A DNA stretch of 13,444 bases from JACPSX01 sp035288405 [NCBI: bacterium]. Lineage in GTDB: Bacteria > JACPSX01. The notes beneath the pieces are model-generated. The model was not told where the DNA came from. It ran no database searches and was given only the letters and a program-made list of their open reading frames with translations. The stretch spans positions 1 through 13,444 of the forward strand of contig DATEAK010000055.1 in assembly GCA_035288405.1 (NCBI GenBank). Reading direction: 5' to 3'. Shown one piece after another: positions 9,224 to 13,444 of the stretch (its first letter is position 1; each line of letters starts with the position of its first letter). Position numbers and translations under genes: made by a program.

Positions 9224-10293
9224 GCCATCTCCCCTCGGGGGTAAGAACCCAGCACGCGCAGATCCACCGCGTCCGCCCACAATTCCTCAAGCGCTTTGCG
9301 GACCGCTTCCTCTTCCAGGTGCCCTGCCATATCCACGAAGAAGACATACTCCCAGGGCTTCTTCTTGGAGGGCCTGGACTCGATCTTGGTCAGGTTGACC
9401 TTCTGCTCCGCAAAAGGAGAGAGCGCTTTGAAGAGAGCCCCCGGCGCGTCTTTGACGGAGAACAAAATGGAGGTCTTATCGTTCCCGCTAGGAGCGGGTG
9501 GTTTCTTACCGATCACCAGAAAGCGGGTGTAGTTGTGCGGGTTGTCTTCAATGCCGCGTGCCAATACGGACAAACCGTAGAGTTCCGCCGCCAGAAGGCT
9601 CGCCACGGCCGCAGCACCCTCTTCTTCCCGGGCCCTCTCGGCGGCCCGCGCGGTGCTCGTCAGCTCCACAAGCTCGGCACGGGGAAGGTTGTGCTCGATC
9701 CATTGCCTGCACTGGGCCAAGGCCTGGGAGTGAGAATAAATACGCTTCACATAGCCTAGTGTGTTTGCGATGGAAACCAGGTAGTGAGTAATCTTAAGGA
9801 AAACCTCTCCACAGATCTTGAGATCGAACTCCATCAAAAGATCCAGCGTGTGGCTCACCATTCCTTCAATGGAATTCTCCACAGGAACGAGCCCGAAAGT
9901 GGCTCGATCCGATTCCACTTCCCGAAAGATGGCCGGAATCGTTTCCAGAGGAACCAGGCTTACGCCGGATCCGAAGTAGCGCTGGGAGGCCTGGTGAGCA
10001 TACGTCGCTTCCGGACCCAGGTAGACGACCGTTGTGGGACTTTCCAGAGCCACGCTGACGGCAAAGATTTCCCGGTACAGTGTACGAATGCCGTCATTCG
10101 GAAAAGGTCCCGGATTACTCGCCGTAAGACGCTCCAGAATTTCTCGTTCACGCTCAGGGACATGGAGTACGCTCGACAGCTTGGCCTTTTCCCGGCCGAT
10201 GTCGAGGACTAGACGGGCACGCTCATTGAGAAGCCTCAGAATCTCGTCATCGAGGCCATCGATCTTCTTTCGCAAATGGGAGAGATTGTCCAA
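9220..10293 (-). CDS. pheA: bifunctional chorismate mutase / prephenate dehydratase (P-protein)
   Basis: Converts chorismate to prephenate and on to phenylpyruvate. It has 357 residues in three parts: an AroQ-type chorismate mutase helix bundle at about 1-85 (LRKKIDGLDDEILRLLNERA, then RLVLDIGREKA); a prephenate dehydratase domain from YLGPEATYAHQAS to about 270, with VPVENSIEGMVSHTLDLL and ELTSTARAAERA; and a C-terminal ACT domain with PGALFKALSPFAEQKVNLTKIESRPSK. The GALxKAL and ESRP motifs are the phenylalanine-binding elements, so feedback inhibition by Phe is expected. There is no ATG near the N-terminus: the only in-frame start that keeps the mutase domain whole is TTG at 10293, with AAGGTGG at 9 nt; a stop codon lies a short way upstream. 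It is the first gene of the minus-strand string. Confidence 0.95.
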   Translation of the reverse strand: MDNLSHLRKKIDGLDDEILRLLNERARLVLDIGREKAKLSSVLHVPEREREILERLTASNPGPFPNDGIRTLYREIFAVSVALESPTTVVYLGPEATYAHQASQRYFGSGVSLVPLETIPAIFREVESDRATFGLVPVENSIEGMVSHTLDLLMEFDLKICGEVFLKITHYLVSIANTLGYVKRIYSHSQALAQCRQWIEHNLPRAELVELTSTARAAERAREEEGAAAVASLLAAELYGLSVLARGIEDNPHNYTRFLVIGKKPPAPSGNDKTSILFSVKDAPGALFKALSPFAEQKVNLTKIESRPSKKKPWEYVFFVDMAGHLEEEAVRKALEELWADAVDLRVLGSYPRGEMA

Positions 10294-10332
10294 AAGCCGG
10301 GACCACCTTACCGTATAGATTTGAGAAGCAAG

Positions 10333-10361
10333 ACTTTACTTGATTCGCGCTGGATCTGCAA
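10333..10361 (-). promoter_or_regulatory. possible sigma-70-type promoter for the pheA operon
   Basis: On the minus strand TTGCAG (10356-10361) and TAAAGT (10333-10338) are 17 nt apart, placing the transcript start about 30-35 nt before the pheA TTG. The match to TTGACA/TATAAT is modest, so this is only the best candidate in the region. Confidence 0.3.
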
Positions 10362-10410
10362 TAGCTTTTTCGCAGTTTCAATCCAGTGAGCATTCAGGCC
10401 AAAGCAAACC

Positions 10411-10455
10411 GGGACATTTTCGACACCCCCTGTCGGCAATTCTGACACTATGTCC
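10411..10455. promoter_or_regulatory. cluster of TGTC/GACA inverted repeats, candidate upstream activating sequence
   Basis: The core is TGTCGGCAATTCTGACA at 10431-10447, a 17-bp site with TGTC/GACA arms. It is flanked by GACA at 10413-10416 and 10422-10425 and TGTC at 10450-10453; the outer pair extends to GGGACA (10411-10416) and TGTCCC (10450-10455). The core centre lies about 130 bp before the predicted sigma-54 transcript start, the distance usual for enhancer-binding activators. The activator is not encoded in this window and its identity is unknown. Confidence 0.55.
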
Positions 10456-10543
10456 CTACCGCTCCCCGGATCGAAGGCTGCTTCCTCCTTATTTTATCCT
10501 TAATTCTCAAGTGGTTACAGATATCATTTGAATTTCGCTTACT

Positions 10544-10559
10544 TGGCATACCGATTGCA
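10544..10559 (+). promoter_or_regulatory. sigma-54 (RpoN) promoter
   Basis: TGGCATACCGATTGCA agrees at every defined position with the -24/-12 consensus TGGCAYRN4TTGCW, with exactly 10 nt between the GG and GC dinucleotides. Taking C10558 as -12, transcription should begin near 10570 on the plus strand. The first possible gene downstream is the small ORF at 10820, and an intrinsic terminator follows at 11037-11058, giving a transcript of about 490 nt. Confidence 0.75.
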
Positions 10560-10619
10560 TGTTCCTAACAACCGAGCGGATGCAAGTCCCTACACAACCT
10601 TCCCAATCACCGCCACAGA

Positions 10620-10649
10620 GAGGCAGCTACTAAGCGTGGTAGCTGCCTC
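10620..10649 (+). other. 13-bp stem-loop in the leader of the sigma-54 transcript
   Basis: GAGGCAGCTACTA (10620-10632) pairs with TGGTAGCTGCCTC (10637-10649) around an AGCG loop, with a single G-U pair. No T-run follows on either strand, so it is not a standard terminator. It starts about 50 nt into the predicted transcript and could be a regulatory, protective or protein-binding structure. Confidence 0.6.
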
Positions 10650-10801
10650 CCCCCTCCTTCAACTCACGAATCCGAGCGTTCTGGATCTTCGTCGCCAGAT
10701 TATCTTCAGGCGATGAAAATCCCCGAAACCTAGAGTTCTCCCCCATTGACAATTCATGGGAACGCAGTAATTTGAAAAATGGAAGTTCGAGATCTCCGTT
10801 A

Positions 10802-10819
10802 GCATACGGGAGGTTATGC
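10802..10819 (+). promoter_or_regulatory. small hairpin presenting the Shine-Dalgarno of the small ORF
   Basis: GCATA (10802-10806) can pair with TATGC (10815-10819), leaving the ribosome site GGGAGG in the 8-nt loop. The start ATG follows at once at 10820. The stem is only 5 bp, so its stability is uncertain. Confidence 0.4.
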
Positions 10820-11014
10820 ATGATGCGAGTCTACGATCTCACAGGCAACAACTCGATATTGCTGGGTGAAGTACTTAAGAAGTCCGGGAAGGCCGGTACT
10901 CGCCGCTTTTGGCTGGAGAGAGTTTGGGAAGGAATCGTCCAGTGGGTTTCCAGACACATTCCACCCAGGTTCCTTGGAAATCTCTGGCACCTCCCCCCAC
11001 ATACCCGGGCGTGA
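10820..11014 (+). CDS. uncharacterised small basic, tryptophan-containing protein (64 aa)
   Basis: I do not recognise this protein. The frame begins with two consecutive ATG codons at 10820 and 10823, preceded by GGGAGGT at ideal spacing, and ends with TGA 23 nt before an intrinsic terminator. The 64-residue product is basic; four of its aromatic residues are Trp. From about residue 30 it could form an amphipathic helix (RFWLERVWEGIVQWVSRHI), followed by a Pro/Trp-containing tail (IPPRFLGNLWHLPPHTRA). No signal peptide or clear transmembrane segment is seen; a peripheral membrane or RNA/protein-binding role would be guesswork. Third codon positions favour G and C, though less clearly than in the long genes. 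It is the only good frame in the predicted sigma-54 transcript, which suggests conditional expression. It could instead be a chance frame in a regulatory RNA. Confidence 0.5.
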   Translation: MMRVYDLTGNNSILLGEVLKKSGKAGTRRFWLERVWEGIVQWVSRHIPPRFLGNLWHLPPHTRA

Positions 11015-11036
11015 CAGACTGACAGAACTCTCCTGC

Positions 11037-11058
11037 GGCCCGTCAGGGGGCCTTTTTT
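11037..11058 (+). terminator. intrinsic terminator after the small ORF
   Basis: GGCCC (11037-11041) and GGGCC (11048-11052) form a GC-only stem with a 6-nt loop, followed directly by six T (11053-11058) and an AT-rich stretch. It has the right orientation to end the sigma-54 transcript and to separate it from glpX. Confidence 0.8.
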
Positions 11059-11236
11059 ATTTCCTGCCGGCCTACCCCCCTACCACGTGACGATGCGCCT
11101 TTATACCTCTTGTCTATTCATCTTCATCCCCGGGGATCCTCTTTTTCAAAACCTCACTCCTTTTAAACACTTGCAGCGTTTCAGAGGCCATGTTATTTTC
11201 GTGCTAGCAACTGCTCTTTTCTTTCAGGAAGAAAAG

Positions 11237-12202: not shown

Positions 12203-12221
12203 AGAGACCCTCTTCTTCCTC

Positions 12222-12345
12222 TCCTCCCATGCGGGGAATTCCGGATTCCCTCGCTCCCATCGGGGGAGAGAGTTTGAGTGAGGGGGAGAGCAGGTTACTG
12301 TGAGAGGGACAATGTTTGACAATCAGACATCCCCCCATTGGGGGA
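12222..12345. repeat. C/G-rich palindromic intergenic repeats after glpX
   Basis: The gap between glpX and the antitoxin holds GGGAAT..ATTCCC around 12235-12251, a CTCCCATCGGGGGAG element at 12254-12268 followed by a GTTTGAGTGAGGGGG tail, and a CCCCC-ATT-GGGGG palindrome inside 12330-12345. The second matches the core-and-tail layout of the element at 13196-13236, so these belong to one interspersed family. No T-run is present, so none is a clear terminator for glpX. Confidence 0.6.
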
Positions 12346-12386
12346 AGGTGCCATCGGGAAAGGGACTGACATCAGGCCTCTTATTC

Positions 12387-12725
12387 CTAACCTTTTTCGC
12401 CAACTTTGACCACACGTCCTCGGACATCTCCTGTCGCACTCGGAAACAGCTCCTTTTTTATCCCCTCCGCCAGCCACTGTCTGATGAGAGTTTGGTAGGG
12501 AATCGATTTCATCGTTGCAATTTTGCGGAGGGCTTGGATCTGAGCCGGATCAAGCTTAATTGAGATGTTCTGCAGGCGTCTCGTCCTTCTTCCGCTCAAG
12601 ATCTCCTTACGCAATTCTTCTTCCAGTGCGAATTCAACAGGGCTCTCATCAAGTTCGCCGAGCACCCCGGATCGATCATAGTACTTTGCCGGGGTCTCCT
12701 TGACCTTGCCGGATCGCTTTTCCAT
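12387..12725 (-). CDS. CopG-type antitoxin of a BrnT-like toxin-antitoxin pair
   Basis: The 112-residue product resembles the CopG antitoxin family that accompanies BrnT-type toxins. The N-terminal half is acidic and probably wraps the toxin (YYDRSGVLGELDESPVEF). The second half holds a ribbon-helix-helix DNA-binding domain: the beta strand NISIKLD around residues 53-59, then IQALRKIATMKSIPYQTLIRQWLAEGIKKEL as the two helices. The ending VVKVGEKG is short and basic. The ATG lies 3 nt after the toxin stop, with GGAGGA inside the end of the toxin gene, so the two are translated together. In such modules the antitoxin, alone or with toxin, represses its own promoter; a palindrome overlaps the promoter here. 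It does not have the compact BrnA layout, so I give no symbol. Confidence 0.85.
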   Translation of the reverse strand: MEKRSGKVKETPAKYYDRSGVLGELDESPVEFALEEELRKEILSGRRTRRLQNISIKLDPAQIQALRKIATMKSIPYQTLIRQWLAEGIKKELFPSATGDVRGRVVKVGEKG

Positions 12726-12728
12726 GGG

Positions 12729-13004
12729 TCAGATCCTCCGATGCCGCTGGTAATATTTGCGCTCAGCTACATCCATGTCCCATCCCGTGATTACACGGAC
12801 AAGGCCCTTACTTTTTCTTTCAAAGACTGCAACAAGCAAGCGGCCTGACCGGGTGCGGCCGAAGGCCGCATAATGGCCCCGCTTTGTCTTTCGAAAAATT
12901 GGGGCGATGGCAAATATCTCTTCAGCCTCTTCTGGCTCAATGCCATGACCGAGCGCAAGGTGCAGCACATTGCCGTCATCCCACTCAAATCCTGAGATTC
13001 GCAA
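12729..13004 (-). CDS. brnT: BrnT-like ribonuclease toxin
   Basis: The 91-residue product matches the BrnT (DUF497) family, small RelE-fold ribonucleases that stop translation until neutralised by the partner antitoxin. Seen: FEWDDGN at 6-12, GHGIEPEEAEEIF at 19-31, GHYAAFGRTRSGRLLVAVFER at 43-63, and VRVITGWDMDVAERKYYQRHRR at 69-90. The usual ISARRA segment reads ITGWDMD, a variant I believe occurs in a BrnT subgroup. The start is TTG at 13004, preceded by GGAG at about 8 nt; an ATG 5 nt further upstream is in a different frame. Toxin precedes antitoxin, the normal order for brnT modules. The weak start codon may help keep toxin below antitoxin. Flanking palindromic repeats suggest accessory DNA. 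Confidence 0.85.
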   Translation of the reverse strand: MRISGFEWDDGNVLHLALGHGIEPEEAEEIFAIAPIFRKTKRGHYAAFGRTRSGRLLVAVFERKSKGLVRVITGWDMDVAERKYYQRHRRI

Positions 13005-13020
13005 CCCATATCTCCACTTG

Positions 13021-13055
13021 GTAATACATTACACTACCCAAACATTTTCCGTCAA
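13021..13055 (-). promoter_or_regulatory. promoter and putative operator of the toxin-antitoxin pair
   Basis: On the minus strand TTGACG (13050-13055) and TGTAAT (13028-13033) are 16 nt apart, each matching 5 of 6 consensus bases. An inverted repeat with arms GTAAT/ATTAC at 13021-13032 overlaps the -10 region, the expected place for an antitoxin-bound operator. The toxin TTG start is about 17 nt further downstream. Confidence 0.55.
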
Positions 13056-13077
13056 GTGCCACCTCCGGTACTACCCT

Positions 13078-13236
13078 CCCTCCCCCATGGGCGGAGAATC
13101 TACCCTCATATCCTCTCCCCTCTCAGGCAGGAGGATTCAGCATCACATCTCCTTCCCCCTTCGCGGGGGAAGATGAAGGGGGGGGCAAACCTATCACCCC
13201 TCGCCCCCAATGGGGGAGAGGGTCTGGGTGAGGGGG
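13078..13236. repeat. cluster of C/G-rich palindromic repeats upstream of the toxin gene
   Basis: Three elements lie in this gene-free stretch: a CCCCCATGGGCGG core near 13082-13094; a perfect 8-bp stem CTTCCCCC/GGGGGAAG at 13152-13159 and 13165-13172 with loop TTCGC; and at 13196-13236 a CCCCC-AAT-GGGGG core with outer CACCCCTCG and GGGTGAGGGGG arms. The last has the same core-plus-GAGTGAGGGG-like tail as the copy near 12254. They look like copies of a non-autonomous interspersed element. Confidence 0.65.
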
Positions 13237-13246
13237 TCCGCTTTCT

Positions 13247-13281
13247 GGCCCTTAGCACTAAGCACTTAGCTCTAAGCTCTT
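13247..13281. repeat. degenerate 7-bp repeat array C (right-edge ORF 3' end)
   Basis: Five 7-mers: ggccctt, agcacta, agcactt, agctcta, agctctt. The middle three are identical, in the same order, to units at 712-732 in the array at the aroC end, 12.5 kb away. On the minus strand it covers the stop codon (13272-13274) of the frame entering from the right edge. Confidence 0.8.
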
Positions 13282-13444
13282 TCTACGATGCGGCGGGGTG
13301 GGAAGGGGTCTGGCGCCGGGCCTTCTCGCGTTGGAGAAGGCTTTTCACCCGGCTCTCCAGAATACTCCCTTTCCCGTTCTCGCTTACTCTCCGCCAATGC
13401 TGTCTTGACAAGTTCGTCAAGGTAGCTACAATGGCTACTTGGGA
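13272..13444 (-). CDS. possible C-terminal end of an unidentified protein, cut by window edge
   Basis: A minus-strand frame is open from the right edge to TAG at 13272-13274 (56 residues). It reads like protein: a charged helix (YLDELVKTALAESKREREREY) followed by a Pro/Gly/Glu-rich tail (GEPGEKPSPTREGPAPDP) and PPRRIVERA at the end. A second minus-strand frame is also open to the edge and stops at 13283-13285, so the reading frame is not certain; I prefer the first for its composition and because its stop lies in a heptamer array, as for aroC and miaA. I do not recognise a family. Confidence 0.35.
   Translation of the reverse strand, partial: PSSHCSYLDELVKTALAESKREREREYSGEPGEKPSPTREGPAPDPFPPRRIVERA

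What the first reader, a model, noticed from the sequence alone, without database searches (positions are those of the whole stretch)
10544..11058. A compact sigma-54-controlled unit encoding an unknown 64-residue protein (or a regulatory RNA)
Seen directly: a full-match -24/-12 element, a single good small ORF with double ATG and GGGAGGT, then a GC stem plus six T. Nothing else is encoded between promoter and terminator. A sigma-54 promoter devoted to one small basic Trp-containing protein, next to the aromatic operon but pointing away from it, matches no system I know.
Basis: partly seen in the sequence, partly recalled or inferred. Interest (0 to 1): 0.75.

Follow-up and report, generated by a model that had tools for sequence, protein, structure and literature searches.

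The report
Sigma-54-driven conserved RNA plus small protein
Between two ordinary metabolic genes of an uncultured bacterium lies a specially regulated promoter that appears to make a conserved structured RNA, followed by a gene for an unnamed 63-residue protein; promoters of similar layout drive small regulatory RNAs in gut bacteria.

Summary
The -24/-12 promoter (10543-10559), small ORF and terminator are real. (1) The promoter is identical over 19 bases. (2) Upstream lie five TGTC/GACA half-sites with identical spacing in both genomes and a weak IHF-like site: an enhancer-dependent sigma-54 layout. (3) From the predicted start 10570 to about 10660 there is a conserved RNA block: a 27-base identical run, then an 11-pair hairpin and a C/U-rich tract. 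It is the best conserved part of the unit and the finding overlooked it. (4) After an unconserved gap, a 63-residue ORF (ATG 10823) is conserved as protein: 35 of 63 residues, ungapped, then a terminator. So 'protein or RNA' is most likely both. The promoter layout resembles glmY; RNA and protein match no family searched. Whether both share one transcript is unproven: a weak conserved sigma-70-like site precedes the ORF. RpoN was not found in the fragmented relative MAG. All conservation rests on one pair of genomes; targets and protein function are unknown.

The parts
10412..10454 (+). Probable enhancer (upstream activating) site: five TGTC/GACA half-sites at 10413, 10422, 10431, 10444, 10451, with a TGTC-N9-GACA palindrome at 10431-10447
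   Evidence: Same five half-sites with the same spacing in L001 (5183, 5192, 5201, 5214, 5221); 0 of 5000 shuffles of either intergenic stretch reach five in 45 nt, 2 of 300 shuffles of the whole window do; 25-nt identical run 10412-10436. Regulator unknown.
10505..10517 (+). IHF-like site TCTCAAGTGGTTA between enhancer and promoter
   Evidence: 1 mismatch to WATCAANNNNTTR (consensus recalled) in both genomes; about 10% of shuffles of the 86-nt stretch have such a match, and the window has a second one at 10326: weak
10543..10559 (+). Sigma-54 promoter, -24/-12: TTGGCATACCGATTGCA
   Evidence: 19-nt identical run 10542-10560 with L001
10570..10660 (+). Conserved RNA block; 5' end at the predicted +1; starts with a 27-nt invariant run (10570-10596)
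   Evidence: 79 of 94 alignment columns identical (my count); fourfold sites of the neighbouring genes are 52-55% identical
10620..10649 (+). 11-pair hairpin, 8-nt loop, one T-A to C-G change on both sides in L001
   Evidence: with two sequences the covariation control has no power
10650..10659 (+). C/U-rich tract CCCCCTCCTT containing CCTCCTT; no U run, so not a usual terminator tail
   Evidence: Read directly; CCTCCTT also follows the hairpin in L001
10746..10773 (+). Possible sigma-70-like promoter of the ORF: TTGACA-N16-TAATTT; conservation resumes about here after the gap 10660-10743
   Evidence: Both hexamers and spacing kept in L001; the second hexamer matches only 3 of 6, and the consensus scan lists it in neither genome
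10792..10814 (+). Possible small hairpin pairing ATCTCC (10792-10797) with the Shine-Dalgarno GGGAGGT (10808-10814)
   Evidence: Both arms and their distance identical in L001. The isolated L001 stretch folds this way; the isolated window stretch prefers another fold
10823..11014 (+). 63-residue protein gene (MRVYDLTG...WHLPPHTRA); an alternative ATG one codon earlier at 10820 is not kept in L001
11037..11058 (+). Intrinsic terminator
   Evidence: counterpart in L001

Best explanation
An enhancer-binding protein (EBP, AAA+ type) binds the TGTC/GACA cluster centred about 135 bp before the start, perhaps helped by DNA bending, and switches on sigma-54 RNA polymerase at 10543-10559. Transcription starts near 10570. 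The first ~90 nt form a regulatory RNA: a single-stranded stretch with almost no G, a stable hairpin and a C/U-rich tract, able in principle to base-pair with G-rich translation start regions. Transcription most likely continues through the 63-residue gene to the terminator at 11058, so that one activated transcript carries both a regulatory RNA (as such or after cleavage) and the message of a small basic protein whose ribosome site may be masked by a local hairpin. Shown by comparison of two genomes: conservation of these elements and selection on the protein. Inferred: sigma-54 use, the start site, a single transcript, pairing with targets, and any function of the protein.
For: Promoter identical over 19 bases, and the invariant RNA run begins at the predicted +1, while only 3 of the 9 bases between them match. 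Enhancer half-sites kept in exact spacing. 27-nt invariant run against 52-55% identity at fourfold sites of pheA and glpX. Hairpin kept with one change on both sides (no power in the shuffle control). A frame opening at ATG 10580 inside the RNA block is shifted by a 1-nt indel in L001, so that block is kept as RNA, not as codons. The 63-aa ORF is ungapped, 35 of 63 residues identical, dN/dS about 0.35, with 0 of 20000 substitution shuffles as similar. The only terminator with a T6-T7 tail found in the unit lies after the ORF in both genomes. G001 has 13 exact sigma-54 sites versus 0 for the control pattern and 20 matches to the sigma-54 activator domain, 15 of them at E 5.2e-67 or better.
Against: Only two genomes carry it, so every conservation claim rests on one pairwise comparison. 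RpoN was not found in G001 with either of two domain models, though that MAG has at least 294 contigs and may be incomplete. Hfq was not found there either. Conservation drops to 43-57% between about 10660 and 10745 and resumes at a TTGACA, which favours two units. The enhancer palindrome pattern occurs at two places in G001, but its reversed control at one, so its rarity says little. Duplex energies with seven nearby translation start regions show no shared target. The 490-nt transcript is not unusually stable (z -1.67). The first ~45 nt of the RNA fold differently in the two isolated sequences.
Confidence: 0.5

Rival explanations
1. Two neighbouring units: a ~90-nt sigma-54-dependent sRNA ending at the 10620-10660 hairpin, and a separate small-protein gene with its own sigma-70-type promoter at 10746-10773.
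For: Unconserved gap 10660-10743 with conservation resuming about TTGACA-N16-TAATTT, kept in both genomes.
Against: The hairpin is followed by C/U, not a U run, while the terminator after the ORF has T6-T7. The second hexamer of the proposed promoter matches only 3 of 6 and the scan lists it in neither genome.
Confidence: 0.28
2. One mRNA only: the 10570-10660 block is a cis-acting 5' leader controlling translation or stability of the small protein, and no free regulatory RNA exists.
For: Same strand, one U-tailed terminator; the Shine-Dalgarno lies near a conserved complementary ATCTCC; the C/U tract could in principle reach the Shine-Dalgarno.
Against: The leader is conserved more tightly than the gene it would control and is separated from it by an unconserved ~85 nt. 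No significant pairing between the RNA block and the ORF start region in either genome (fraction of shuffles at least as good 0.68 and 0.495). No Rfam family matches in the window.
Confidence: 0.17
3. The 5' block encodes a leader peptide from ATG 10580.
For: In the window the frame from ATG 10580 is open for 17 codons by my reading; its first five residues (MQVPT) are those of L001 (one search printed the L001 peptide; its window start was off by one base).
Against: A 1-nt indel shifts the frame after eight codons, and in the identical 27-nt run third positions are as invariant as first and second, so selection is not on codons.
Confidence: 0.03
4. The promoter and ORF are chance patterns in an intergenic gap.
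For: The promoter match alone is only moderately unlikely in one window.
Against: Conservation of promoter, enhancer, RNA, ORF frame and terminator in L001.
Confidence: 0.02

Closest known systems
GlmY/GlmZ sRNA genes of enteric bacteria (sigma-54, activator GlrR/QseF, enhancer TGTC-N10-GACA)
   Same: Sigma-54 promoter in front of a small structured RNA and a TGTC/GACA enhancer; for Proteus mirabilis glmY also putative IHF sites, and glmY is cotranscribed with the protein genes downstream of it (PMC8745638, passages; PMC4987338, table passage).
   Different: Palindrome spacing N9 rather than N10; no Rfam match to GlmY/GlmZ; downstream gene is an unknown small protein, not the two-component system; a quite different organism; Hfq not found in the relative; four of 15 EBPs scanned score far under the GlrR cut-off.
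Dual-function RNAs such as SgrS/SgrT (recalled, not searched by name)
   Same: If one transcript, it would join a regulatory RNA and a small protein.
   Different: SgrS is smaller and, as recalled, not sigma-54-controlled; here the RNA block is 5' of the ORF and a single transcript is not shown.
Qrr and CrcZ/CrcY sRNAs (recalled; only title and start of abstract of PMC10162802 and PMC6296734 were seen, listing)
   Same: Sigma-54-dependent regulatory RNAs switched on by an EBP.
   Different: No Rfam family matches the window; no small protein attached in those systems as recalled.

Membership tests
Sigma-54-dependent promoter | -24/-12 element TGGCAY-N5-TTGCW | tested here: met
   Exact match; identical in L001
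Sigma-54-dependent promoter | EBP binding site upstream | tested here: inconclusive
   Conserved, non-random TGTC/GACA cluster; binding itself cannot be tested here and no activator could be assigned
Sigma-54-dependent promoter | RpoN encoded in the genome | tested here: inconclusive
   No genome held for the window; not found in the fragmented relative G001 with two domain models, although activator domains and 13 exact promoters are
GlmY/GlmZ | Sequence/structure match to the Rfam family | tested here: not met
   No Rfam match at gathering threshold in the window nor up to E=5 at 10540-10860; no GlmY/GlmZ among the two chance-level L001 hits
GlmY/GlmZ | Enhancer TGTC-N10-GACA | tested here: not met
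   Half-sites match but the spacing is N9
Dual-function RNA | Regulatory RNA and small protein on one transcript, each with its own function | not testable with these tools
   Conservation of both parts only; no transcript data
Known small-protein family | Profile match | tested here: not met
   Pfam best E 0.13, 12.4 bits against a cut-off of 27; NCBIfam none up to E=1; PHROGs none up to E=1; PDB none up to E=10

The most novel reading that the evidence does not exclude
A new family of sigma-54-activated dual-function RNA: one enhancer-controlled transcript that carries a 5' regulatory RNA with an exposed CCUCCUU tract (the same letters as the anti-Shine-Dalgarno end of 16S rRNA, as recalled) and a conserved 63-residue protein, under a regulator that may serve this locus alone.
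Probability: 0.25. Interest if true: 0.6.

Novelty: new variant of a known kind. Interest (0 to 1): 0.42.

Why it matters
If true, it would extend sigma-54-controlled regulatory RNAs, which I recall mainly from Proteobacteria, to an uncultured lineage. It gives a concrete, bounded RNA, a small protein and a candidate enhancer to test together.

Tried and rejected
Relatives: the 131-nt promoter/RNA DNA query in 98 genomes gave one strong match, G001 itself, plus five genomes with weak matches (E 0.02-0.09), not followed. The 63-aa profile in 386 genomes gave G001 (4.5e-42) and four partial matches at E 0.004-0.009, taken as chance and not followed. The RNA model in 386 genomes gave G001 and three others, E 1.1e-4 to 0.009. 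I looked at those three alignments and at the surroundings of the best, L047 in G061: no -24/-12-like site (up to 2 mismatches) in front of it, and it lies on the minus strand between two plus-strand ORFs, overlapping the end of the first; rejected. L048 breaks 5 of the 11 hairpin pairs; L049 matches model positions 28-82 only. The 'phylum' scope of G001 held only G001 and kinship is not told, so absence in the 386 says little about close kin.

GlpX neighbours: 29 of 98 genomes, G001 included, have a GlpX match. I ran tblastn of PheA and the small protein on 30 GlpX loci from other genomes (29 plus L002): PheA none at E<=1, the small protein one 12-residue match at E 0.60. Flanks are about 1.5 kb at most, several are shorter, and L002 begins inside the gene, so it cannot show what lies upstream.

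Which activator: 15 of the 20 activator-domain loci were read and four of those 15 scanned against NCBIfam. Each matches 22 EBP models, all below cut-off; the nearest is L069 to NtrC (547.8 against 558.6 bits); GlrR scores 325-383 against 763. No activator was assigned. TGTC-N9/10-GACA sites in 37 held G001 loci are no more frequent than chance by my estimate; one lies at 897 in L066, near an EBP gene.

Other sigma-54 sites: of the 13 in G001, one (L055) seems to lie inside a coding stretch and may be chance (my reading).

Targets: duplex energies of the RNA with seven translation start regions in both genomes against 200 single-base shuffles each: none stands out in both (lowest fractions pheA 0.225/0.015, tyrA 0.195/0.055, glpX 0.135/0.065). 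Most start codons used there are those of the longest ORFs, unverified. A genome-wide target search was not done.

Structure: AlphaFold2 on the two-row alignment, mean pLDDT 58.8, helices only; no fold search was made. Viral contigs: none. Plasmids: none. Papers: Tectomicrobia with sigma54, none; Tectomicrobia with small RNA, one paper in the listing, unrelated by its abstract; PilR with TGTC, none; dual-function/small RNA/sigma54/RpoN, 239 papers, 8 listed, titles and abstract starts only, nothing of this kind seen; PMC4641369 searched for passages, no TGTC or GACA in its text.

Full report
What the window is. By Pfam and NCBIfam matches it carries, on the minus strand, aroA (partial), aroC, aroK, miaA, sppA, rpsA, cmk, tyrA, an aminotransferase gene and pheA, and on the plus strand glpX (class II fructose-bisphosphatase) from 11237 (gene names are mine from the families). 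The unit in question lies between pheA and glpX, pointing towards glpX. No whole genome is held for the window. A search with the GlpX protein found one close relative, L001, in a Candidatus Tectomicrobia MAG (GlpX 87% identical in the best segment; 279 of 310 aligned residues), and one distant one, L002. L001 is collinear with the window from within rpsA to glpX.

Checking the observation. The promoter match by itself is not overwhelming in a 13-kb window, so I turned to L001.

Comparison with L001. The pairwise alignment shows blocks of strong conservation separated by poorly conserved sequence. The neighbouring genes are diverged enough for this to mean something: fourfold-degenerate sites are 88 of 161 identical in glpX and 84 of 161 in pheA. 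The longest identical runs in the intergenic stretch are 27 nt (10570-10596, at the predicted transcription start), 25 nt (10412-10436, enhancer), 20 nt (10297-10316, beside pheA), and two of 19 nt (10542-10560, the promoter, and 10353-10371, the probable pheA promoter). A run of 27 or more in 950 columns at 60% identity occurred in 0.035% of 20000 simulations.

Promoter architecture. Five TGTC/GACA half-sites at 10413-10454 keep their exact spacing in L001; 0 of 5000 shuffles of either intergenic stretch reach that density, and 2 of 300 shuffles of the whole window do. The central palindrome pattern TGTCNGNNNNNCNGACA occurs at two places in G001, one of them this locus, but its reversed control occurs at one place, so rarity alone is weak evidence. 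An IHF-like site (one mismatch to a recalled consensus) lies between enhancer and promoter in both genomes, but about 10% of shuffles have one. G001 has 13 exact TTGGCAYN5TTGCW sites against none for the reversed pattern; some stand before genes that I read, without a family search, as flagellar or response-regulator genes, and one seems to lie inside a coding stretch. G001 has 20 matches to the sigma-54 activator domain, 15 of them at E 5.2e-67 or better, and those 15 I read. Against this, RpoN was not found in G001 with two domain models; contig numbers run to at least 294, so the MAG is fragmented and the gene may simply be missing.

The RNA block. From 10569 to 10660, 79 of 94 alignment columns are identical (my count). 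A single-nucleotide indel shifts the frame that opens at ATG 10580, so the block is kept as RNA rather than as codons. A stable hairpin (10620-10649) forms in both, with one T-A pair that is C-G in L001 (with two sequences the covariation control has no power). The part before it is largely unpaired with almost no G over 10591-10618, and its first ~45 nt fold differently in the two isolated sequences. The hairpin is followed by a C/U-rich tract with CCTCCTT in both, not by a U run. No Rfam family matches the window; L001 gives two chance-level hits.

The protein. From ATG 10823 both genomes have 63 codons, no gap, 35 of 63 residues identical. Each of the other five frames of the same stretch has a stop in at least one of the two genomes: four of the five in L001 and the fifth in the window. 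dN is 0.37 and dS 1.06 by NG86; YN00 gave no value. Placing the same substitutions at random positions kept 24 residues on average and never reached 35 in 20000 trials. The middle third is much less constrained (dN 0.72) than the two ends (dN 0.21 each). No family or PDB match; the AlphaFold model is poor. The Shine-Dalgarno GGGAGGT lies 10 nt after an ATCTCC that could pair with it, identical in both; the isolated L001 stretch folds so, the window stretch prefers another fold.

One unit or two. Between about 10660 and 10745 conservation falls to 43-57%, and it resumes at TTGACA-N16-TAATTT, kept in both genomes. This may be a separate promoter for the ORF, but its second hexamer fits 3 of 6 and the scan lists it in neither genome. 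The U-tailed terminator is after the ORF in both genomes. I favour a single transcript carrying both parts, at 0.5, over two units at 0.28.

Comparison with what is known. [quoted passage not shown] mirabilis glmY, which is cotranscribed with the protein genes downstream (PMC8745638, passages). The present unit may work like that at the promoter level, but it fails the sequence and spacing tests for being GlmY/GlmZ, so it is not filed there.

Distribution. Beyond L001 nothing convincing was found in the 98 or 386 genomes listed as relatives of G001; the best GlpX match among the 97 other genomes is 54% identical, so they are distant. The unit is thus known to me from two genomes, and all conservation arguments rest on this pair.

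Noticed in passing
window 10290-10375, minus strand: The probable promoter of the pheA-led aromatic operon, TTGCAG-N17-TAAAGT, is conserved in L001 (identical runs 10297-10316 and 10353-10371); the hexamers were read by eye.
   Followed up: partly
window 11172-11200: A conserved stretch in front of glpX with TTGCAG and TTATTTT in sigma-70-like spacing, so glpX probably has its own promoter (read by eye).
   Followed up: partly
L057 and L058 (G001): Two similar short response-regulator genes (by my reading), each with a sigma-54 box and similar upstream sequence.
   Followed up: no
window 12203-13444: DNA similarity with L001 ends just after glpX; the three plus-strand ORFs scanned there have no Pfam match over cut-off.
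   Followed up: no
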